Assembly (NCBI RefSeq): GCF_964355755.1
Contig: NC_092680.1
Coordinates: forward strand, 13,741,001-13,805,000
DNA from: Antedon mediterranea
Taxonomy: Eukaryota; Echinodermata; Crinoidea; Comatulida; Antedonidae
DNA length: 64,000 bases
Reading direction: 5' to 3'
The notes below the pieces were generated by a model that saw nothing but the letters and a program-made list of their open reading frames with translations, made no database searches and was not told the origin of the DNA. This document shows positions 29,620-63,642 of this stretch, piece by piece (position 1 is the stretch's first letter; each line of letters begins with the position of its first letter). A program made the position numbers and the translations under genes.

Positions 29620-30250
29620 ATTTTTTTTATTTATTTATTTCCTTTATTGCATCAAGTAAGCAGTGATGAAGTTGACATAAATACAATAGTAAATATGTAA
29701 ACACATAGTATAACACAGTCCAAACAAGTAATACTAAAATAAATCATAGTCCACAAATCAGTCTTTCAATGGCCATCATAGTACATCCAGTAACACAAAC
29801 CAATAGGGGTTCACAATTTGCTTATCATAACTCAGTTACTGATCATTCACCAATCATTGAAAACTCCGTGGAAAGTAATGAAGTTTTTTGTGCGTTGTGT
29901 CCGGACTTTGGGGAGGGTGAACGATCTAACGCGTCGGAGTTGATGGTTGTGTGTGGGAGGTTTAGGTAAGAGAGAGTGTAATATATGATCTTCTTTTTTC
30001 ATTTTATCAAAGAATTTTCTTGACAACTTCTCGTGGCGTTCAGATAGAGTGATGATGTTAAGGTATCTGCGGGTATCAGCATACGAGGTACCATCGGGGC
30101 ATATTATGTTACACGCTCTTCTTTGGACATGTTCGATTTGGTCAGATTGTGCTTTGGATAAACTCGGGGACCAAACAGCACAGGCATATTCGAGAACTGG
30201 TCGTATCACTGCTTGATAGTATCGGAGCAGTTCCAGTCTATCTAGGCCAG
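29620..30250 (-). pseudogene. LINE reverse transcriptase C-terminal fragment (minus strand)
   Basis: On the minus strand an open frame of about 130 codons starts LRYYQAVIRPVLEYACAVWS and continues EHVQRRACNIICPDGTSY. This is the thumb/post-RT region found in many non-LTR retrotransposons (IRPVLEYACPVW). The upstream polymerase domain is missing, so it is 5'-truncated at about 30250. A T-rich stretch near 29615-29640 on the plus strand is its tail. It lies about 65 bp upstream of the first coding exon of the PARP gene, in that gene's 5' intron or promoter region. Confidence 0.8.
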
Positions 30251-30325
30251 ACTCTGAATTATTTGTCCAAAATATTCAACAATTTCACTATTATTTTACT
30301 ATGGGTTTCTTTCAGAATGCATTAA

Positions 30326-39300: not shown

Positions 39301-42300
39301 TTTTTATTATTATGGTTGAAAAGAATTAAAATAAAATAACTCTGAATCCTCATGTAAAGATAAAAATATATTTGTTTCATTCCTAGCCTGCAGTATGCGA
39401 ACGTGAACTATGCGTATTTGCATTCCAAACTCTCGGTGTGATGCGCAATGCAGCTGAAGACATTGCAATGGGTGCTGAAGTTGTTGATCTGCTTGTTGCC
39501 ATGGTTTCATCAGCTGTGAAATCCAAAAGAAAAAGTCTGATTCTTGATCCTTATCCAATGGTTGTTGATCCTACTAACCCGAAGGAATTTGCTTTCTCTC
39601 CAAAGGTAAATTAATATCAGTATTTCAAAAGAGGAACACATAAATGTTTACTCCTGTGTCAAGTTACGTTAACAGACCCCCTAAAGTCTACACTATCAGA
39701 CTTTAGGTGTAAAAAAAATGTGATGTACCCATATATGGACAAATGTCCATCATCTCATGCATGACTCATATTTTTTTCATTTTTTAGAAAAAAGATTGTG
39801 CAGGATTTCAAAAGATTGAAAAGTCATTAGAAAGTTTTATATCAATCCGTGAGATGCTTGCCACTGGAGATCCTGCTAACATGAAGAAACGAATGGATAT
39901 AAAGGATCCAAACTCATATCCATTACTGCAATGGTAATGCAATCTGATAGAATATTAGTTAAAATATGTTTTACAAAAATATTTCATTACTATCTAGAGT
40001 AACAGCAAGTAACTCACCATTTACAGGATGGATAAACATGCTTTTAATCCAAGTTTCATTTGAGGTTTACAGAATGGAGTAGAAATCTACCCAGGTACTC
40101 CAATACTACCTGAGCAACTACAATCTAAACAAATAAGTAGTATTTTACCCAAATTTAATATTTTTCTTTATATTAACAGGATTGTATCCAGTAACAGGTC
40201 CCATATAGTAAAATTACCAGACTCAAGGGTAAGTTCACATCATTATAATACAGAATGGTTTTTAATTAACTATCACATTAATAATATCCATACTCTATTT
40301 TACTATTAAAATATCACCTTGTTTCTCTTCCATTAGCAAATCAAATCCAAACTCCATGTTTTAACCTCTTTACTATTATATGTGTCATCGTCTTTTGTTT
40401 CATCAGCAAATTACATCCAAACACCATACTTCAGAAACTTTACTATAATGTGACATCATCGTTTATTTAAATCCTAAATGTTTTTATTTCATCAGCAAAT
40501 CAAATTCATGCACACACCTCATCAGTTTTTATTAATGACGAGTCCACCTTCTAAGGAGATCATCTTCTCAAAGGCTAAGCTGGAGCATGGTAGTATCTTT
40601 GCCTTTCAGTAAGTTGTTATGACCATGTTTGCACCAATTTAACATAATCACAAGTATTATTATAGTTTTATTAATTTACAGGTTATATCCAGGCTTAGTT
40701 AGCCCCACCCCTGTAGTGTAAAAATTAGCTCCCACATCAGATATTGAATACGTTTATTTATTATGGTTATTTAGATGATTGACCATTGCTCCAAAGCCAC
40801 AAAATAGATAAGAAAATGTCTAAAGGTTAGGACAACTGCATATCAAGCAAACGGTCCGAGTTCGAGTCTCGGTTGGAGCGACTTTTTCTCATTCTCACAG
40901 ATTTCCTCATCTTTATCGTTTCAAATTAATTAATTAAATTTCAGTATATCATTGGGCTGTTTAGAGTTACTGTTCTGTGCCTGATTTGTTTATATATATA
41001 TATATATAAACACAGTAGGCAAAGAACACTAATTCTAAACCGCCCGGTGATATACTGAAATTTAATTAATTAATTTGAACGATAATATATATATATATAT
41101 CGTTATTGTTTCAAATTAATTAATGAAATTTCAGTATATCATCGGGCGGTTTAGAATTACTGTTCTGTGCCTGATTTGTTTATATATATAAAAGTATCTC
41201 TTCGGAGATCCCGCCTCGTGAATAAAAATACTGAAAGATGAGGGCGTATCAATTTGATCTCTGTTGCGCGTGCATACAACTGAGGACTAGTGCTGTTCCG
41301 CCGTACCACGCCGAGAATGTTAAAGAGTCGTTATCCAATCGAGTTCGAACAATACCATGAAAGCCCCAGTGGTCTAATGGTTAGGACATCTGCATATCAA
41401 GCAGGCGGTCCGAGTTCGAGTCTCGGTTGGGGCGACTTTTTCTCATTCTCACAGATTTCCTCATCTTTATCGTTTCAAATTAATTAATTAAAGATGTATT
41501 GTCCCTTGAAACACAAAAAAATGAAAGTCAAAATATTCTAAATTTAAAGTGGCCATATCAAAGTAATATTAAAGTTATTCACTTTAAGTCGAAAATTCGA
41601 GCCAAAAACAACAAGTTTACGTAATTAACAGGTAAATTAGTTTAATTACATTTCATCTGGAAAATCGTCACGAGCGAAAGTAAACAAAGATTTCAAAACA
41701 TGAGTACGCATTATGCATATGCTAAATTAGGATTGTTTACAACTCGTCACGGTTAAGAAGGTATTTTCACACAGATCATGAGGAAGTTTTATGATTATGC
41801 ATACAGAGTAGCCAAACAAGTGCGTTACATTATGGGATATGTTTTGATTGAATACTTTGACTGGAAGTCAAAGTTATTTTTTTAACAAAAAAACGTCTGT
41901 ATTTCAGTTAAATTTTTTTTTTTTTTCGAAAAATTTTTGGTGATAGTTAATAACTATTATGATACTTCAAAATGACCCACCTTTTTTCGAAATCTTTTAT
42001 TTTTTATTTTTTTGGAATTAGTCAAAGGGACAATACATCTTTAAATTTCAGTATATCACCGGGCGGTTTGGAATTAATGTTCTTTGCCTCTTGTGTTTAT
42101 ATATATAAAAGTATCTCTTCGGAGATCCCGCCTCGTGAATAAAAATACTGAAAGATGAGAGCGTATCAATTTGATCTCTGTTGCGCGTGCGTACAACTGA
42201 GGACTAAGTGCTGTTCCGCCGTACCACGCCGAGAATGTTAAAGAGTCGTTATCCAATCGAGTTCGAACAATACCATGAAAGCCCCAGTGGTCTAATGGTT

Positions 42301-45300
42301 AGGACATCTGCATATCAAGCAGGCGGTCCGAGTTCGAGTCTCGGTTGGGGCGACTTTTTCTCATTCTCACAGATTTCCTCATCGTTATCGTTTCAAATTA
42401 ATTAATTAAATTTCAGTATATCACCGGGCGGTTTGGAATTAATGTTCTTTGCCTCTTGTGTTTATATATATAAAAGTATCTCTTCGGAGATCCCGCCTCG
42501 TGAATAAAAATACTGAAAGATGAGGGCGTATCAATTTGATCTCTGTTGCGCGTGCGTACAATTGAGGACTAGTGCTGTTCCGCCGTACCACGCCGAGAAT
42601 GTTAAAGAGTCGTTATCCAATCGAGTTCGAACAATACCATGAAAGCCCCAGTGGTCTAATGGTTACGACATCTGCATATCAAGCAGGGAGTCCGAGTTCG
42701 AGTCTCGGTTGGGGCGACTTTTTCTCATTCTCACAGATTTCCTCATCTTTATCGTTTCAAATTAATTAATTAAATTTCAGTATATCACCGGGCGGTTTGG
42801 AATTAATGTTCTTTGCCTCTTGTGTTTATATATATAAAAGTATCTCTTCGGAGATCCCGCCTCGTGAATAAAAATACTGAAAGATGAGGGCGTATCAATT
42901 TGATCTCTGTTGCGCGTGCGTACAACTGAGGACTAGTGCTGTTCCGCCGTACCACGCCGAGAATGTTAAAGAGTCGTTATCCAATCGAGTTCGAACAATA
43001 CCATGAAAGCCCCAGTGGTCTAATGGTTAGGACATCTGCATATCAAGCAGGCGGTCCGAGTTCGAGTCTCGGTTGGGGCGACTTTTTCTCATTCTCACAG
43101 ATTTCCTCATCTTTATCGTTTCACATTAATTAATTAAATTTCAGTATATCACCAGGCGGTTTGGAATTAATGTTCTTTGCCTCTTGTGTTTATATATATA
43201 TATATATATATAATAAAAAATAAACTACTTCTTAGTTATATTTTAAGTGTGGTTTGATATATCATTTTTATTTTTAAATTATTCAGTGGCTCTCATATAG
43301 AAAACTGGCATTCCATTTTACGCAAAGGTCTCATCAATGCATCAGGAACTAAATATCAAGTAAGACATACTGTATGACAGATAATCAGTTAATGTAATAC
43401 ATTTTTGTTTTACTTCCAAAGACAATTGCACAATCATGCATACACAACAAGGCATATTAAAGGTTTCTGATTATTGTATTCATGAATGGAAACAAAGTAT
43501 GCTAATACATCTAATGCTATCAACATTTTTAAAAATGTGATGTGCCCATATATGGACACGATGATGTCATATCGCTACCATATTTGGACACATCACTACC
43601 ATATTTGGGCACATCACACTTATTTTGTCAAACTTGTTTGCTTAATACATCCAGTGGTTTTTATTACAGCTGCATGGTGCTGCATATGGCCAGGGTATTT
43701 ACCTCAGTCCTCATTCCAGTGTTTCGTTTGGATATTCTGGAATGGGTCATGGATATCATAGAGACCCAAATAGGACAATACATGTGGTGAGTACAAAGAA
43801 ATACAGTTACAACTAATTTATGTTGGTTGTTTTTTGTCTATTAAAAAAATGTTAAAATCTGTTATTTAATGATTTTATAAATGTATTGGGTGTTTATAGA
43901 ATACAGTACACTCATATATTGATATTCAGAACATTGATTATTTCCAGACAAACAAGAAGTCTGATTGTAGATTTTTAAAAAGTAAAAATCTTACCTGTAT
44001 AGCACTATGTGAAGGTAAGTACTGTCTGTGGACATGTTTCCGCAGCCAAAAATTAACCGATAATTAACCAATCAACTGCCTATGGAAACAGGGTTTAACC
44101 GTTAATTATCTCACTAAAATCGGATAATTATCGTATAAATACGATTGTGTTGTGTTTGGACATCTGGTTGTTTGGTAATGACTGATCATGCGCACTTTAT
44201 TGGTTAAAGAATTAGCAGATAACATTGTTTGTGGCTGCGGAAACACGGCCTGTATTTATAATATTTTAATATTAAAATTGTAATAATAATGGTAAAAATA
44301 CTAATGTACTAAATATAGGTTTAATGAATCCTCACCATCTGTATAACCTTTCTTGTTATCTGTATATAAATCAACGCAATGGCAAATTTCAGTAAATAAG
44401 TAAAATAAGTTTTACTCGATGGTATATAAAGTTGGTTCATACTTTCGGTCCTGATTACACGATAGGCTATATTACTTTCCTTAATTTTAAAGATAAATAC
44501 TAAAAAAAAGGGCAAAAAATAACAGTAATTTGACATGTTTCGTGAGTTGTTACGTCACGTATCAACTACGCAACCTCCTATGTTGTGTACCACCATGCCC
44601 GGATCTACAAATACCATGCCGCGCCGCCAAATTAAAACAGTGTTTAGTCTCCGGAAGTCAGTCAACCGTATTGAATAATCACGTTTTTGAAGTTTTAATT
44701 ACACCTATCCTTTGAACAGAATGATTTTTGTAAATCACGGTTTGGCTCAGTGAGTAAAACGTCATGGCCATTGATATCAATGCTTAGTACGTTCGAGTTC
44801 GAATCCATGATATGTGTAAATTATCCGTATCACCGTTTAAACCAAAAAATCAAAACTAGAACACAATGTAATGTAATCAAAAGTAGCAAAAGGGATACCA
44901 AACCTCACGCAAAAAATGCAAAATATAAAAAACAATTGATGTAAAATAACAAATAACACAAATCGTATTTCCACAAAATTTCAACGAAAAATACACCCAA
45001 AATTTAAAAGTTTGTGTCCGAGCGCATCATTTAATTTCAAGTTGTGCACTTTTTGTGTCCATAAGCAGCTGTAGTTTTATTATTCTATAACTTAATTCAT
45101 ACATTGACATAGACATCGCTTTATTCATCTATAAATTTGGAAATTTCTTAGCTTTCTCTCTCAATAAATATAAAAACAGAATTAAATAAAGACAAAAGAA
45201 TATAACTAACAAACATATCTTCTATTGAAAAAGCCAATACCTCTTGAAATAAAAGAGTTGGGATATCGGTTCGTGTTACCGCCAGTACCCTCAGTCTATC

Positions 45301-49464: not shown

Positions 49465-49730
49465 AACTCAATGGAGATACAAAAAAAAACTGAAAAGCTA
49501 AATCAAAACGATTAAGTAAAACAGCCAGAAAAGTTAGCAGAGCTTTCGGGCAAGTGAGTGTACTTGGACAAAGTAAATAGTATATATATATTAATGTTCT
49601 ATGTGTTTATATATATTGATGAAGGGCTAGTGTTGCCTGAAAACTATTCTGGCTGTTTTAAAAGTTAGCATTTACTTTTTGCTTTTTTTTTGTATCTCCA
49701 TTGAGATCCAGCCACTGATACCCACAGCAT
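49465..49730. repeat. Inverted repeat (MITE-like)
   Basis: ACTCAATGGAGATACAAAAA at the left is inverted as TTTTTGTATCTCCATTGAG at the right, and AAAACAGCCAGAA pairs with TTCTGGCTGTTTT. The total length is about 260 bp. Confidence 0.65.
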
Positions 49731-50165
49731 TGTCATTTTTTCAGTAATTTGCCTTTGGATTTATATATATATATATATGTTACAATATATGTGTTCCAAC
49801 ACTATTTTATAATTTACAAAAATTGTTTTTAATACTTCTAATTAAATAGTTTTAATTTGTACACCATGAATTAGAATACCATGTTTCTTAATGAAAGGGT
49901 TTTAAAGCTTTCTGTTTATTAACTTTGAAATATTTTATTACAATCCATCAACAAATAGTTTATTTATTTTGTATTAGTAAGGGATCATGTCTAAATAATT
50001 CCAGCGCAAAGACATATGGTTTTAGTTTGTTTTAATGTGGAAGCTTAGGTGGCAGTTATCATTGCTATATACAATGTGTAAGTTATCAAAAGAGCTTGCT
50101 AAATAATAAACAAGTTTAAGGGCAAACACAATATACTGCAGCAATAGTTTTGATATGGTCCCTTA

Positions 50166-54800: not shown

Positions 54801-57800
54801 AACAAAATAACAATAATGCCATTGTATTACTAACCTGAGTACAGTTTTGAGGAGTACCATCATCTAGCACAATGCACAAGATGCTTGATATGATATCCTG
54901 AACATGACGTTCATTAGCAGAATCTAGTTCAATGAGATGCTGGAACGACTGAAAGTTTAAAAAAATTAAAATTTTAAAATTAAGATACCTCAATAAGTTA
55001 GATATTTGTAAGTCTCCTGGTCCAGACAAAATAAACTCTCCAGTCTTAAAGGAAACAAATTTACAATTGGCTGATCTCTTTAAGCATTTATTAACTAAAT
55101 TGATGAAGTAAGGAGCTATCCCCCTATCTTGGGGCCTTGCAGACGTTATACCTATATTCAAAAAAGGAAATAAGTCTACACCTTTGAATTATAGACCAGT
55201 GAGCCTGACTTCACTAGTATGTAAAACTATGGAAACATTCATTAGGAATAATATAATGGATTATATGGAAAGCAACAATTTGTTCACCAAAAGTCAACAT
55301 GGTTTTCGGCCGGGTAGGTCATGTAATACAGCACTACTAGAAGCGATAAATCAGTGGACCAAATGGTTAGATGAAGGCTCGAGTTTCGATTGCGTTTTCT
55401 TGGATTTCAAGAAAGCTTTTGATAGCGTTCCACATAAAAGATTAATCAACAAGCTGAAAGCATATGGTATAGGAGGAAACTTAGTGCAGTGGATAGAGGC
55501 GTTTCTTACTAATAGATCACAGGTAGTTGTTGTAAATGGTGTTAGGTCAAACAGCAAAAGAGTAACAAGTGGAATACCTCAAGGAAGTGTTCTTGGACCA
55601 CTGCTCTTCAACTTGTATATCAACGACCTTCCTGATCAAATAGATTCCGAAATAACAATTTTTGCTGATGACACCAAGATTTTTAGAAAAATAAATAATT
55701 TAGATGATGCCAAAAAGTTACAAGATGACATTGACAAGCTGTTTAAATGGTCTATAAAATGGCAACTACCGTTTAACTTAGATAAATGTAGTGTCATGTA
55801 TTTTGGTAGGAAGAACAATAAATTTCAATACAAGATGGGCCATGCAGAAAACAAGAAACTACTACAATGGGTCTCCAAAATGACAGATCTCGGGGTCATA
55901 ATTGACGATAAATTAACTTTCGAATCCCATGTGGCTCAAGTTGCTATGAAAGCAAATAAAAAGCTGGGCATCATATATAGGTCTTTTGATTATTTATCCT
56001 GTCACTCATTATCTCTTCTGTACAAATCGATTGTAAGACCATCCATGGAATATTGCAGTACTGTTTGGCAACATGTTTTTTTGAAAGAATCTGATAAGTT
56101 GGAAAAGGTTCAACAGCGTGCATCTAGAATGATAGCAGATTTACGTCAGTATGAATACAGTCAACGACTTTCCAAAATGCACCTTCCTACTCTAGAATAC
56201 AGAAGATTGAGATCCGCAATGATTCAAGTATTCAAAATGTTCTACGGTTTCACTAAATGTAACAATGAGGATTTTTTTAGGTTAACCACTGAATCTAGAA
56301 CCAGAGGACACTTTTTGAAAATTAGTAAACCTCGTACTCACTTAAGGATACGGCAGAAATTTTTAACAAACTCTATTATCGACACATGGAACAACTTGCC
56401 TTAGGATGTAATAGAAGCTGCAAATGTTAATCAATTTAAAAACCGACTAGAAAAGTTTTGGAAACACCACCCACTAAAGTTTTCCCCATATGATAGAACA
56501 TGTAATAGAATATACCGGAGGGACACACAAGCATTGCTTTAGATGTCCAAGATCAAGGTAAATCAAGGTAAAAAATTTATACAGGGTTAAAGTTAGTCAT
56601 TATTTAATCTTATAATTAGAAATATCAATTAATTAAATTAATATACAGGTTTCAAATATAAATTATTATACAGTATAGTCTTTTTTTTTAAATTACAAAG
56701 TAACATTAATTCCAATTATAGTACAATTATTAAATTTTAAATTCATTTATTTAAAAAGTCTTATTGCACTCGGTAGAGTTGAAATTGCGTAACGGTTGGT
56801 AGAACATAAATTGGATATCATTTCTTCAACTTGGTAATCCCATTTCATGTTAAGTTGTAATCAAAACCCCAGTAACTCAACAACAGGCCTTTCTTCAAGT
56901 ACTTTGTCCGCAATAGTTAACAGCACAAAATTGGGTTTGTTTCTCATAAAGTGGACATGCATTATATGGCATTTAGTAGGGTTGGGCAGCATGTCATTCT
57001 CAACACACCAGGTTTGTAGTGCATCGAGATGACTATGAATAGAATGACCAAATTATTACCACTTCGAGGTACACGATTAATCTCACCGATTATGATTATT
57101 ATTATTATTATTATCCACAAACTTCCATCTTTTTGGAACATGTTCCAACAAGTCATTTACCATCAGAATTGAAGAGGCCCTAGTTTGGTGCCCTAGAGCA
57201 CTCAGCAATAAAACTCTCAAAAATACGACCAAATAAAAATGTTATCGATATGGTCGGTATTCATCAGGATTAAAGGCTATGGGTATCTCTTGAATAGGGA
57301 GGTTCAAAATGTGGAAGTTTTACTAAATAACAATACAGGTAGCAGCAATACTGCACCTTAGCTTATCTCGTGTTAAACATATTTTGGGTTAAATTTTTAA
57401 AACAAACCTTTGCATATGATGTCCTATCACCAACTGTTAAAGAGCCAATTCCTTGACCTCGGTTACGACTTTTCTCCTTTATATGTGAAAGTTGCCTGAA
57501 ATGTATCATTAATAATACACATTGTCACAAAATATTATATTAATAGTAAGAATTCATGCATATAGTATATTAATGCATGCATTCATGCATCTATATATAA
57601 ATTATGGTTAATTCTGACATAGGCGAGCACAATGAAAAACTTTGGTACAAATCTCCGTCTTGGATACCTACCTTATCTATCTGAGATGTACCGCGAAACG
57701 TAGATTTGATAACATTAGTGTTCACGCCGACGCTATTGTTCCATATTTCTATCTTAGGAAGATATTATAAAGAGTTTTTTATCAAAATTTATGATTTCAA

Positions 57801-60800: not shown

Positions 60801-63642
60801 ATTTCCTCGGTTGGTATTTTTTCTTGTCTTGTTTAACTAAAGACAATATCATTATATATATACAAATTTACATTATCAATGGTATACAAACAAAAATATG
60901 CTACTATAAAATGAAAAAATACCGGTAATTAAATTACGGAATCTGAACTGACTACAAACTCGATGTAAAACATGCGCAGTCGATCATGTGACGACAAGCA
61001 ATAGCTTAGCGCTTCATGTACGCGGTACGCGGTAAAGTATTTGCTGGAGAAATACAGACAACTTAACCGGCGGTAAAGACGTGTCTGGAAATACAGACAC
61101 TATCGAATACGGCGCCTAAACAAGGGAAGGCCAACTCAGACAGCGTCGTCGGGGAGCCTAGCCCCGTTCGCGTTCACTTCATATAGCTTCAGCGCCTAGA
61201 AAACCACGACGTTCCATTGACCGTGAGAGTACGTCAGAGGGCTAATATGCACTTTTATGCATTCATTATTGCCAGCGATCTAACTTACTACTAAACATTA
61301 GCTAGGTACGCACTTGTCTGGCGGTATCCCTTTGTACGAATCGTTCAACGTTGGGTCGAGACGCGTGATATCAAGTTTCATCCAGGGACCAAAATGTGTA
61401 ATGTAGTTATTTTCCAGACGAAGTTTACCGACGGTTACCGAAGGGAACACGTGTACTTTTTGTCGGGGAATATAATATACAGTAAAAAGCGTTCGCATTC
61501 ACTTCGTAGCTAGCTTCAGCGCCTAGAAAACCGCGACGTTTCATTGACCGTGAGAGTACGTCAGAGTGATATTATGCACTTTATATGCATTCATTATTGC
61601 CAGTGATCTAACTTACTACTAAACAATAGCTAGGTACGCACTTGTCTGGTGGTATCCCTTTGTACGAATCGTTCAACGTTGGGTCGAGACGCGTGATATC
61701 AAGTTTCATCCAGGGACCAAAATGTGTAATGTGTTATTTTCCAGGCGAAGTTTACCGACGGTTACGTCGTGTACTGCGTCGACGTACACTACACTACAGC
61801 AAAAACGAATTATGTTAATTGTTCGTTTGTTCACCAATTTTTTAATTTACAAGTAACCTTCTGTACCGTGGGGCATCTAAAATAAATTTTTCATCCATTA
61901 CTAAACAAAAAAACATGCCATTTTCGCTTAGCCAACATTATAGCTATAGTTATTACATTTTCAATATCCTGTATGTCATGAATTTCTCACCACTCGGAAG
62001 TCCAGATGGTACGCATGCATACACCTGGGAGGAATAAACTTTTTTCCCCGACTGAAAAAGGTCTACGCTTGCGTTTTTAAGCCTCTAGGCCTGATGTTTC
62101 CAAAGTATAAAATGCAATTTTTTGAAGACCTGCAGCTCTAGTTTTAAACATTTTCTTAGCTCAGCCCCAACAATAAAGCTGGTCATATTTCGAAGAAGTA
62201 CATTTTCCGGGACCTAACATCTCTATTTTTCAAACATTTCTTAGCTCAGTCACAACCCATGATAGGGACTTATATATTTTTTTTTCATGTTTTGAAGTAT
62301 AATAAGTCCAATTTCCGGGACATCCAACTCTATTTTTCTAAATTTTCTTTGAACTTTTATTTTTTAAATTGAAAAATATGGATTGAAACAGTCATCGCGC
62401 ATCGTTTTTTTGCACGCAGTATTTTATTTATGCATTATAAAAAATGGAAAAAATGGCTACCCTAAATCTGATTAAAAAGACCTCAAATGACGCTAGAACG
62501 CGTTGCTTCCGGGGGCTTCGCCCCCTGGACCCCCACCAGGGGCCCTTGGCGGCCCCTGGCCCTCAGCCTAGTGATGCTCGCTTCGCTCGCATATCCCCCT
62601 CGTTGGGGAATGTAGCCCCCGCGTCGGGAAGGTCCTGGCGCCACCCCTGCTGAGTTGGCCTCATCATGAGAGCGTTAAGTTCTGGTGTCCATCGTTCAAC
62701 TAGCCCAAGTCACAACAGAGAGTCTTACATCAGTCTTTAGAACGTCAAATAACGCAAATTTTTCCAGGCCCTTCGGCCCCTGGACCCTGACCCCTTGGCG
62801 GCCCCCTGGCCCCCAGCCATTGTTGCTCGCTTCGCTCGCACCCCCCCATTATAAATGCTGCATACGGGCCTGAATGTTGATAATTAATAATGTAAGATGC
62901 ATAAAATACCTGAATATTTCATGTGAAGAGATAGCATATTCATTTTTATCAAGGGGGAACATCTTGAAAATGTGACCATTACAAATAACAATGATGTGAT
63001 TACCTCCACAAGCACCTTCCCTTTCTGAAATAATAAACCATTTCACATTAATTTGGTTTCATTTCTGTATTTCAACTATATTTTATGAGGGCAGAAGGTG
63101 ATCCTTTAATCACTGTTTAACAATAGAGAGCGGAGTTGTTTTATCGTATCATTTATTTTGCAATTAACAAATACAAACAAGAAAACAGAACAAAAGTAAA
63201 TCAATGAGGCAATGAGGCAGGATCACAAAGAAAATACTTATTATAAGATATAAGATATTTCAAATGTTTAAAAACGTTAAAATTACATTTTCGGAAGAAA
63301 GTTAATATTGCGTATAGTATAAGTATATAAAACAGTATTTTTAAAATAAATTAGTAAAATATTTCTTATCTGTATATATATATTATATATAAACACATCA
63401 GGCAAAGAATATTAATTCTAAACCGCCCGGTGATTATGTTTTATTGTTACATCAGACTGGGCTTGAACACTGGTATTTGTAGGCACGTTATATTGTAAGT
63501 AATGATATTGAGAATTTAACCTGTTTTAAAAGATCTAATGAGTTGGTCACGTTTAATTCCAGGAATACGTCCACAATTAAATATGCTACGAAGTTGATGC
63601 ATCGATAGTTTATCCTTTCTACCATCTGGAGCTATTAATTGC
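51822..63642 (-). CDS. CROT: Peroxisomal carnitine O-octanoyltransferase, C-terminal part (5' exons outside window)
   Basis: Twelve minus-strand exons join in phase to 470 codons plus stop: 63521-63642, 62910-63024, 57408-57495, 54835-54948, 54632-54736, 54333-54416, 53536-53646, 53220-53350, 52833-52956, 52517-52689, 52066-52185, 51822-51948. The family transfers medium-chain acyl groups between CoA and carnitine. Landmarks: FNCGRIPG; GPQPWNKWSDKALS; the catalytic histidine in NCDHAPYD, split between two exons; KNMEVLS; YETAATRKFYKGRTETIRS (carnitine-binding region); and GGGGNFVLSTSVIGY near the acyl pocket. The protein ends in SKL, a canonical peroxisomal targeting signal type 1, which supports CROT rather than a mitochondrial CPT. 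About 140 N-terminal residues are expected beyond base 64000, judging from the usual ~612 aa. Confidence 0.93.
53745..54110 (-). pseudogene. LINE reverse transcriptase C-terminal fragment in CROT intron
   Basis: On the minus strand an 81-codon frame reads LQVCYNNGLRMLLQRPHHCSA and PSFYELLKKSIYGLMCRL. This is the extreme C-terminus of a common class of non-LTR retrotransposon ORF2 (pattern YNN-LR-LL, ASxMF, VPSF, IYGFM). A CATT-type repeat at 53747-53765 marks its 3' tail. Strongly 5'-truncated. Confidence 0.75.
54986..56575 (+). pseudogene. LINE reverse transcriptase, 5'-truncated, two stops (CR1/L2-like)
   Basis: One plus-strand frame runs from 54986 to about 56540, broken only by TAA at 55109 and TAG at 56402. 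It carries the RT motif series: SPGPDK, NYRPVSLTS, QHGFRPGRSC, FLDFKKAFDSVPH, GIPQGSVLGPLLF, the active-site FADD, and the C-terminal RPSMEYCSTVW thumb region. After the second stop the frame continues DVIEAANVNQFKNRLEKFW to the usual end. The tail is a short AATCAAGGTA repeat (56555-56572). The endonuclease and ORF1 are missing. It lies in the CROT intron about 40 bp from exon 54835-54948, in opposite orientation to that gene. Confidence 0.9.
56755..57200 (-). pseudogene. LINE reverse transcriptase middle fragment (different family)
   Basis: On the minus strand, broken frames read MVNDLLEHVPKRWKFVD, then WCVENDMLPNPTKCHIMHV and, after an in-frame stop, MKWDYQVEEMI. These are the post-FADD palm and thumb signatures of I/Jockey-like non-LTR elements. 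A (TAA/ATT)n run at 57090-57115 interrupts it. It differs in sequence from the plus-strand element next to it and represents an independent insertion. Confidence 0.7.
57496..58759. other. CROT intron, no clear feature
   Basis: AT-rich with a C-run at 58447-58465. CATTTACATATAGATACCGC and TCATTTCAATTTCAATTCTTCC look like repeat fragments but have no partners in the window. Confidence 0.35.
58760..59385. mobile_element. TTAA-type MITE family A, copy 2 (626 bp)
   Basis: Same length as the copy at 9576-10201 and in reverse orientation, flanked by TTAA (58756-58759 and 59386-59389). The copies are nearly identical over the whole length, including the GCGGCCCGCTATAAATCCC-type block, implying fairly recent spread. 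Confidence 0.9.
59575..59880. repeat. Repeat fragment with CCTAGAAAACC block
   Basis: Contains a poly(C) run (59619-59638), GGGGAGCCTAGCC motifs and a CGCCTAGAAAACC...GTACGTCAGAGGGCTA block related to the duplicated block at 61170-61770. A more distant relative is at 8410-8640. Confidence 0.6.
60430..60800. repeat. GC-rich repeats and a transposon terminus
   Basis: The 60440-60560 stretch (GGGGGATTCGCCCCTCTGGA) belongs to the same GC-rich family as 62490-62875. At 60739 the CAGGCCCGTATCCAGG terminus followed by inverted GGGGGGTGCG/CGCACCCCCC is a typical DNA-transposon end. Confidence 0.55.
60595..60665 (-). repeat. tRNA-like SINE fragment
   Basis: Minus strand: AAGCTTGGTGGTATAGACAG resembles box A (TGGTGGTATAG) and GTGGGTTGGAGTCCC resembles box B. 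No clean cloverleaf and no terminator was seen, so probably a SINE remnant. Confidence 0.4.
61170..61770. repeat. Tandem duplication of about 320-330 bp
   Basis: The block GCGCCTAGAAAACC through TGCACTTT, ATTCATTATTGCCAG, TACGAATCGTTCAACGTTGG and ATCAAGTTTCATCCAGGGAC to TTTACCGACGGTTACC (about 61188-61440) repeats at about 61519-61765 with roughly 95% identity. Confidence 0.85.
61771..62489. other. CROT intron, repeat-derived
   Basis: Three degenerate repeats of a CTCTATTTTT/TTTTCTTAGCTCAG/TTCCGGGAC series occur at about 62130, 62190 and 62310, and one at 59990-60100. No gene. Confidence 0.4.
62490..62875. repeat. GC-rich dispersed repeats
   Basis: Two tandemly related blocks (CTTCGCCCCCTGGACCCCCA and CTTCGGCCCCTGGACCC), each followed by CTCGCTTCGCTCGCA. 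They end ATACGGGCCTG at 62873. The same family is at 60440 and 14200-14335. Confidence 0.6.
63025..63520. other. CROT intron with a fragment of the tRNA-array unit
   Basis: Bases 63375-63435 (TATATAAACACATCAGGCAA, ATTCTAAACCGCCCGGTGAT) match the flank of the 364-bp tRNA-like unit in inverse orientation. The rest is AT-rich. Confidence 0.5.

What the first reader, a model, noticed from the sequence alone, without database searches (positions are those of the whole stretch)
40788..43080. Tandem array of tRNA-like genes with AUC anticodon inside a PARP intron
Four intact 72-base cloverleaves and one interrupted copy sit in 364-bp tandem units. Each has good box A and box B and a T5 terminator, so polymerase III transcription is plausible. 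The anticodon by position is AUC (Asp GAU), which eukaryotes do not normally use: A34 would become inosine and could misread Glu GAA. The body has a Glu-like box A. Either this is a tRNA-headed repeat, or a set of unusual tRNAs. The interrupted copy has compensatory acceptor-stem changes (GCTCCAA/TTGGAGC against GCCCCAG/TTGGGGC), which hints at past selection for structure.
Basis: partly seen in the sequence, partly recalled or inferred. Interest (0 to 1): 0.75.

Follow-up and report, generated by a model that had tools for sequence, protein, structure and literature searches.

The report
Tandem jumping element carrying tRNA gene
The repeated tRNA-like genes are probably not a set of odd tRNAs but one insertion of a common jumping element, found well over a thousand times in this animal genome, that moves like Penelope-type or ribozyme-bearing elements yet carries a complete tRNA gene.

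Summary
The cloverleaves are real: four 72-nt tRNA-like genes with anticodon AUC. They belong to a 364-bp unit spread over the 354-Mb genome: 1,619 matches to its 3' tail, 947 to its anticodon arm. In 77 loci fetched without selecting for the tRNA, the 3' end is nearly constant, 5' ends are cut at scattered points, units join head to tail at one fixed joint (27 of 77), inverted pieces occur (10 of 77), and insertions favour (TA)n tracts. That is the footprint of Penelope-like elements (PLEs) and metazoan retrozymes rather than of a satellite or ordinary SINE; PLE genes are in this genome. The tRNA part is no more conserved between copies than its neighbours, and host tRNA-Asp(GUC), Glu and Gln genes exist, so working AUC tRNAs are unlikely. 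Unusual: a whole tRNA gene with its own T5 lies inside the unit; no canonical hammerhead core was found; an upstream arm is complementary to the tRNA 3' half. Autonomous partner, RNA and species remain unknown.

The parts
40547..40608 (+). upstream exon piece of a PARP-like gene (donor GTAAGT at 40609)
   Evidence: joined exon peptide matches PF00644 at 2.9e-5 (24.1 bits, below the curated cut-off of 26.7)
40818..40999 (+).
   Evidence: preceding 30 bases found once in the genome
41000..41085 (-). inverted piece of the unit (positions 278-364), 94% identical
41099..41189 (+). truncated copy (positions 274-364), 89% identical, joined to the next unit
41190..42106 (+). unit interrupted after about position 303 by a TTAA-flanked insert; tRNA at 41363-41434
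41492..42040 (.). secondary insertion: inverted ends AGATGTATTGTCCC...GGGACAATACATCT, TTAA on both sides (piggyBac-type MITE by inference; limits read by eye)
   Evidence: sequence
42107..42471 (+). complete unit (365 bp); tRNA at 42281-42352
42472..42835 (+). complete unit; tRNA at 42645-42716 (69 of 72 identical to the common tRNA)
42836..43199 (+). complete unit; tRNA at 43009-43080, T5 at 43083-43087, 3' end TTTATATATAT
42957..42995 (+). upstream arm complementary to the tRNA 3' half and its trailer (unit positions about 122-160)
43287..43359 (+). downstream exon of the PARP-like gene

Best explanation
The array is an insertion complex of a dispersed, non-coding retroelement about 364 bp long that carries a complete tRNA gene (tRNA body plus T5). 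It is copied by target-primed reverse transcription of the kind described for Penelope-like elements (PLEs) and proposed for metazoan retrozymes. A nicked (TA)n target is the landing site, synthesis starts at or near the TATATATAT of the RNA, and the enzyme runs back through a circular or multimeric template. This leaves head-to-tail full units behind a 5'-truncated one. Shown here: unit, dispersal, near-constant 3' end, scattered 5' ends, fixed unit joint, (TA)n preference, PLE genes in the genome. Inferred: that a PLE supplies the enzyme, that the template is circular or multimeric, and that the tRNA gene serves as promoter rather than as a decoding tRNA.
For: Copy number: 687 exact anticodon-arm 25-mers, 947 with free loop and one further free base, 1,619 tails with up to 1 mismatch; the backward-read control patterns give 0. 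Of the first 100 listed tails (79 clusters, all on C1; two clusters over 2 kb not fetched in this step), 77 loci: 72 of 77 hold a copy reaching position 350 or beyond; 27 of 77 hold a joint end|1; 10 of 77 hold inverted pieces; of 63 loci whose 5' junction was examined, 37 have three or more TA or AT repeats in the 15 bases before it, against 1.9% of window positions and 6.3% of sampled upstream positions. 5' ends of 67 loci run from 5 to 310; no 5-nt bin stands out (best 6; random P of 6 or more 0.14). PLE-type proteins with RVT_1 and GIY-YIG are encoded here. A neighbouring family with a hammerhead-like core (1,518 matches) ends in the same motif, TTTGCC(T/G), 3-8 bases, TTTATA (29 of 40 loci; 42 of 77 for this element; the 7 window hits all lie in copies of these two families by position) and lies within 500 bp of 8 of 79 tail clusters against 0.15 by random placement. 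Literature: tandem structure, internal initiation and AT-rich cutting of a PLE, PMC11167929 (parts 1 and 2 of 4); partial tandems, inverted pLTRs, AT-rich targets, PMC3846280 (passages); metazoan retrozymes as 150-450-bp tandem repeats possibly mobilised by PLEs, PMC7229834 (section 14 and passages).
Against: No autonomous partner with the same end was found: the end motif is absent from the six GIY-YIG loci fetched (6 of 7 matches), and two PLE proteins find no coding match in L001-L024, L031-L107 or the window. Target-site duplications could not be read because targets are (TA)n. Co-location with the hammerhead-like family could mean only that both insert into (TA)n; no unrelated repeat was tested as control. 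Likeness of units within an array is only weak support: mean 98.6% for 32 pairs against 95.8% between loci, but 21 of the 32 pairs come from one array; without it 97.6% (11 pairs) against 96.6% between array loci (109 pairs). T5 directly after the tRNA should stop most pol III transcripts before the tail (recalled), so the template RNA may have another promoter. Absence of other T4 runs in the unit is not significant (P 0.12).
Confidence: 0.72

Rival explanations
1. The 364-bp unit is the pseudo-LTR (pLTR) of a still unseen autonomous PLE whose tandem copies flank its ORF; most genomic copies have lost or never carried the ORF.
For: PLE pLTRs can be direct and inverted repeats, and pLTRs can flank other sequence than the PLE ORF (PMC3846280 passages); the pLTRs there, about 181-218 bp, are shorter than this unit. 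PLE proteins exist in the genome.
Against: No PLE coding sequence matched in L001-L024 (about 1.5 kb on each side, some overlapping or duplicate loci), but only two PLE proteins were used. Among 5' flanks of up to 69 loci compared, no pair but the duplicates L048/L049 shares both break point and flank.
Confidence: 0.15
2. An ordinary tRNA-derived SINE moved by a LINE, secondarily amplified in tandem.
For: tRNA-like part, high copy number, 5' truncation.
Against: The tRNA starts at position 174, so a pol III transcript starting there would lack the first 173 bases, which the 48 near-complete units carry by selection and 30 of 67 5'-most copies carry in part (5' end at or before 173); T5 lies before the tail; exact head-to-tail joints in 27 of 77 loci.
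Confidence: 0.07
3. A functional family of unusual tRNAs (Asp codon GAU, possibly misreading Glu GAA through inosine 34).
For: Complete cloverleaf, 57.9 bits, T5; anticodon ATC in 54 of 55 sampled copies and in 95 of the 100 listed places (of 947); last base G as in host Asp genes (by eye).
Against: tRNA region 3.8% divergence between copies against 2.8-3.7% upstream and 2.5% at 263-312; no compensatory pairs; identity to host Asp 42 of 73-74, to Gln 51 of 73 and 48 of 72, to Glu 47 of 72 and 51 of 74; host Asp(GUC) genes present.
Confidence: 0.03
4. Satellite DNA spread by recombination at the DNA level.
For: Higher-order repetition in one array: in L108 units 1 and 4, and units 3 and 6, are identical, which unequal crossing-over could give.
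Against: 63 of 79 clusters on C1 hold a single listed tail; they are dispersed, 5'-truncated and often in (TA)n.
Confidence: 0.03

Closest known systems
Metazoan (non-LTR) retrozymes, PMC7229834 (passages and section 14 read)
   Same: Small non-coding unit in head-to-tail copies, unit size within the 150-450 bp given there, about 43% GC, strongly self-paired RNA by prediction, suggested there to be moved by PLEs or LINEs.
   Different: A complete tRNA gene lies in the unit, and no canonical hammerhead core (CTGANGA, short stem, GAAA) was found in it. Circular RNA not tested.
Penelope-like elements and their pseudo-LTRs, PMC11167929 (half the text read), PMC3846280 (passages read)
   Same: Partial tandems, 5' truncation, inverted copies, AT-rich targets.
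   Different: No ORF with RT and GIY-YIG found in the loci examined with two query proteins; a search for 'tRNA' in PMC3846280 gave no occurrence.
Helenus / Ajax / Cassandra (TRIMp3), PMC10886601 (abstract and passages read)
   Same: Small non-autonomous retroelement with a tRNA- or 5S-derived pol III promoter inside its terminal repeat; tandem arrays mentioned for LTR-11_DR.
   Different: Those are LTR elements with PBS, PPT and 4-5-bp duplications; here 5' ends are scattered and 3' ends merge into (TA)n.
tRNA-derived SINEs (recalled definition)
   Same: tRNA-like part, high copy number, non-coding.
   Different: tRNA in the middle of the unit, T5 before the tail, exact tandem joints.

Membership tests
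Penelope-like element | ORF with RT and GIY-YIG endonuclease | tested here: not met
   No PLE coding match in L001-L024, L031-L107 or the window with two PLE query proteins; so at most a non-autonomous or pLTR derivative.
Penelope-like element | Tandem or partial-tandem copies with a truncated 5' copy and inverted copies | tested here: met
   27 of 77 loci with a joint, 10 of 77 with inverted pieces, scattered 5' ends in 67 loci.
Penelope-like element | Insertion into simple AT-rich sequence | tested here: met
   37 of 63 5' junctions against 1.9% (window) and 6.3% (local) background.
Metazoan retrozyme | 150-450-bp tandem monomers, low GC, dispersed | tested here: met
   364 bp, tandem, dispersed, about 43% GC.
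Metazoan retrozyme | Type I hammerhead ribozyme in the monomer | tested here: not met
   Majority sequence as dimer, both strands: CTGAGGA once per unit, no GAAA within 70 bases after it. Rfam shows none but Rfam also misses the hammerhead-like cores in L001, L010 and L015, so its silence does not count. Non-canonical ribozymes are not excluded.
Metazoan retrozyme | Circular RNA | not testable with these tools
   No RNA data.
tRNA-derived SINE | tRNA part at the 5' end, pol III transcript including the tail | tested here: not met
   tRNA at 174-245, T5 at 248-252, tail to 364; the transcript itself was not seen.
Helenus-type TRIM | Two fixed LTR ends with short duplications | tested here: not met
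   5' ends scattered over the unit in 67 loci; PBS, PPT and duplications not tested.
Functional tRNA gene | Structure kept by selection in individual copies | tested here: not met
   tRNA part not less divergent than neighbours; no change on both sides in 21 pairs, 42 units.
Functional tRNA gene | Mature, CCA-ended, charged product | not testable with these tools
   No small-RNA data.

The most novel reading that the evidence does not exclude
The tRNA gene has taken the place of the self-cleaving ribozyme. In multimeric transcripts of the array, RNase P and RNase Z could release unit-length RNA at the tRNA, while the upstream arm, complementary to the tRNA 3' half, masks the tRNA in RNA that must stay whole, as complementary stretches are reported to block the hammerhead in plant retrozymes (PMC7229834, passage). 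A host tRNA pathway would then do for this element what catalytic RNA does for retrozymes. The 5' ends of genomic copies do not show cutting at the tRNA borders, which weighs against it without excluding it.
Probability: 0.1. Interest if true: 0.8.

Novelty: new variant of a known kind. Interest (0 to 1): 0.5.

Why it matters
It would be a small non-LTR element with PLE/retrozyme-style tandem copying that carries a complete tRNA gene, parallel to what Helenus and Cassandra are for LTR elements. It gives a natural case for asking whether a self-cleaving ribozyme is dispensable in such elements (the in vitro PLE work in PMC11167929 found hammerhead activity not needed for insertion). It is also a warning for tRNA annotation: all 40 best-scored places of 1,192 candidates carry the identical 72-base tRNA, so possibly hundreds of well-scoring 'tRNA-Asp(ATC)' genes in this genome would be mobile-element parts.

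Tried and rejected

Cluster of 5' ends at the tRNA 3' border (positions 246-250, 5 of 67), which would have hinted at RNase Z cutting or a stalled enzyme: not significant among all bins; 148-152 has 5 and 271-278 up to 6. 5' ends are fewer inside the tRNA than uniform (7 of 67, P 0.007) and more in 246-312 (30 of 67, P 2e-5); scarcity of TA in the GC-rich tRNA could explain the first. The 67 leave out 10 of 77 loci: 8 with edge-limited, broken or unassigned starts (L045, L047, L060, L084, L096, L098, L102, L107) and 2 set aside as duplicates (L049 of L048, flank 99.7% identical; L046 only presumed). In several loci the start was chosen by hand between the alignments. The 63 junctions are a further hand-made subset of these.

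Covariation for the cloverleaf and for the long fold of the unit: none (0 of 21 pairs; 1 of 117 pairs against 1.1 in shuffles). The alignment used 42 of the 46 distinct units listed; L023:1118-1499, L090, L098 and L108:2014-2361 were left out. The fold itself is strong (-118.2 kcal/mol, z -5.85, 0 of 100 shuffles as good; the other strand -106.3, z -5.36), but an inverted repeat alone gives that.

Homogeneity of arrays as a sign of one template: weak once the seven-unit array is left out.

Similarity of the unit to the hammerhead-like repeat: score 24 against a shuffle mean of 24.3, rejected.

Absence of T4 runs as a sign of pol III read-through: not significant. Literature searches for a tRNA gene in a PLE or retrozyme listed no such report that I recognised from titles and abstract starts, in this open-access library only.
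Full report
WHAT IS THERE. The window is G000:C11:13741001-13805000 of a 354-Mb, 18-contig genome; the species was not identified. ARAGORN and Rfam confirm four complete tRNA-like genes with anticodon ATC. They lie in a PARP-like intron (40609-43286): the joined flanking exon peptide matches PF00644 at 2.9e-5, below that model's curated cut-off in bits. Taking position 1 as the AAAAGTATCTC after the TA run, the unit is 364 bp: 173 bp of upstream part, the tRNA at 174-245, AC and T5, and a tail ending TTTATATATAT. The window complex, 40818-43199, reads from 5' to 3': a copy truncated at tRNA nucleotide 10, an inverted piece, a short truncated copy, a unit split by a TTAA-flanked insert, and three complete units.

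NOT AN ISOLATED ARRAY. A 25-base exact pattern over the anticodon arm has 687 matches, the same arm with a free loop and one further free base 947, and a 25-place tail pattern with up to one mismatch 1,619; the patterns read backwards have none. To look at copies without choosing for the tRNA, I took the 100 listed tail hits (of 1,619), all on contig C1: 79 clusters, of which 77 were fetched (two longer than 2 kb left out; one of these two, an array, was fetched later as L108). In 72 of 77 a copy reaches unit position 350 or beyond. 5' ends, read in 67 loci, are scattered from 5 to 310. In 27 of 77 a joint end|1 is present; of the 20 joints caught by a stricter pattern, 16 have the same TA run length (counted by eye). 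Ten of 77 hold inverted pieces. Of 63 5' junctions examined, 37 have a TA or AT run of three or more repeats in the preceding 15 bases, against 1.9% of window positions and 6.3% of positions sampled in the first 120 bases of the fragments.

HOW IT LIKELY WORKS. A fixed 3' end, scattered 5' ends, (TA)n landing sites and full units stacked behind a truncated one are what reverse transcription from a nicked TA tract on a circular or multimeric RNA would leave. For a lizard PLE, internal initiation, AT-rich cutting and tandem organisation are reported in PMC11167929 (parts 1 and 2 of 4 read); there, initiation was at a site not homologous to the cut DNA, so priming by TA pairing, as drawn here, is my inference. 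PMC3846280 (passages) describes partial tandems, inverted pLTRs and AT-rich targets. PMC7229834 (passages and section 14) describes metazoan retrozymes as 150-450-bp tandem repeats possibly moved by PLEs. Units within an array are on average more alike (98.6%, 32 pairs) than between loci (95.8%, 1,096 pairs; 48 units in 33 loci, 24-locus part of which had been selected by tRNA or 5'-part identity), but 21 of the 32 pairs come from L108; without it the figures are 97.6% (11 pairs) and, between array loci, 96.6% (109 pairs). This is weak support at best. L108 (seven near-complete units) repeats with a period of three units: units 1 and 4 and units 3 and 6 are identical.

LINK TO OTHER ELEMENTS. 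PLE-type proteins occur in this genome: GIY-YIG search, 7 matches among 150 scored of 355 candidates; the ORFs of L027 and L030 hold RVT_1 and GIY-YIG, the latter in L030 just under its cut-off. Several loci carry near the element a repeat with a hammerhead-like core, CACTGATGAAGGGC...GCCCGAAAG, with 1,518 matches genome-wide at up to 2 mismatches. On C1 its listed exact copies lie within 500 bp of 8 of 79 tail clusters against 0.15 by random placement. Both families end in TTTGCC(T/G), 3-8 bases, TTTATA: 42 of 77 loci and 29 of 40 loci; the window has 7 such hits, all at copies of the two families by position. The 40 loci are 40 of the 100 listed, all on C1, and mostly chosen away from the tRNA element. 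In these 40, similarity to the long form ends 1-8 bases before the core in 19, 7 of them at 7 bases, so this kind of reading can show a crowded 5' end, and the tRNA element shows none as sharp. As I recall hammerhead anatomy, a type I hammerhead cuts downstream of that core, so this cluster is not the expected cleavage site and I do not interpret it further. Whether that core is an active hammerhead was not tested; Rfam does not recognise it.

THE tRNA. The 40 best-scored genome places carry the identical 72 bases (of 41 matches, 1,192 candidates). Anticodon ATC is kept in 54 of 55 copies of the sample that cover it and in 95 of the 100 listed places (others: GTC 2, TTC, ATT, ATA one each). 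Divergence in the tRNA is 3.8% (155 of 4,043 letters), upstream 2.8-3.7%, at 246-262 1.3%, at 263-312 2.5%, at the pattern stretch 313-337 1.5% (biased by the search), in the last 27 bases 7.2% (127 aligned pieces). So individual copies do not look held as tRNA genes. Against host genes fetched here it is 51 of 73 and 48 of 72 identical to Gln(TTG), 47 of 72 and 51 of 74 to Glu(TTC, CTC), 42 of 73-74 to Asp(GTC), 41-42 of 73-75 to Lys; no close parent was found among the few isoacceptors tried. Asp(GTC), Glu and Gln genes exist by ARAGORN; the Gln and Glu patterns fall largely in single-site arrays.

RNA SHAPE. The whole unit folds into a long rod (-118.2 kcal/mol; z -5.85). Positions about 122-160 pair with the tRNA 3' half and its trailer; forcing the cloverleaf in the majority sequence costs 24 kcal/mol (-93.5 against -117.5). 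No covariation supports either fold; copies are too alike. The arm may be no more than an old inverted duplication of the element's 3' part.

THE COMPENSATORY CLAIM. The GCTCCAA before the first copy lies in DNA found once in the genome with up to 3 mismatches, and similarity to the unit begins only at 40818. I read it as flank.

VERDICT. A real, well-observed feature with a different reading: a dispersed tandem retroelement carrying a tRNA gene. The resemblance is to PLE derivatives and retrozymes, but the defining hammerhead was not found and no ORF was seen, so it is filed as works like, not member of. Searches of the open library listed no report of such an element that I recognised; paywalled work and repeat databases were not searched.

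Noticed in passing
G000:C8:23582228-23673161 (L109 = 1 kb of it): A single-site run of tRNA matches (58 of the 62 matches); the 1 kb typed by ARAGORN holds five tRNA-Lys(TTT) genes about 175 bp apart. Patterns for Gln, Glu and a Gly-like anticodon arm also cluster on C2, C6, C10 and C7.
   Followed up: partly
window 49591-49770: What looks like a fragment of the element's tail runs directly into a diverged copy of the hammerhead-like repeat family with the same kind of end.
   Followed up: partly
window 63384-63434, minus strand: A short isolated 3' fragment of the element.
   Followed up: no
window 41492-42040: TTAA-flanked element with short inverted ends inserted in one unit.
   Followed up: no
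G000:C1:11113200-11116500 (L108): Array of seven near-complete units with a three-unit higher-order period (steps 364, 350, 358 bp between anticodon arms).
   Followed up: partly
window 55112-56404 and 29847-30275: Open frames that look like LINE reverse-transcriptase pieces (read by eye; no family search run).
   Followed up: no
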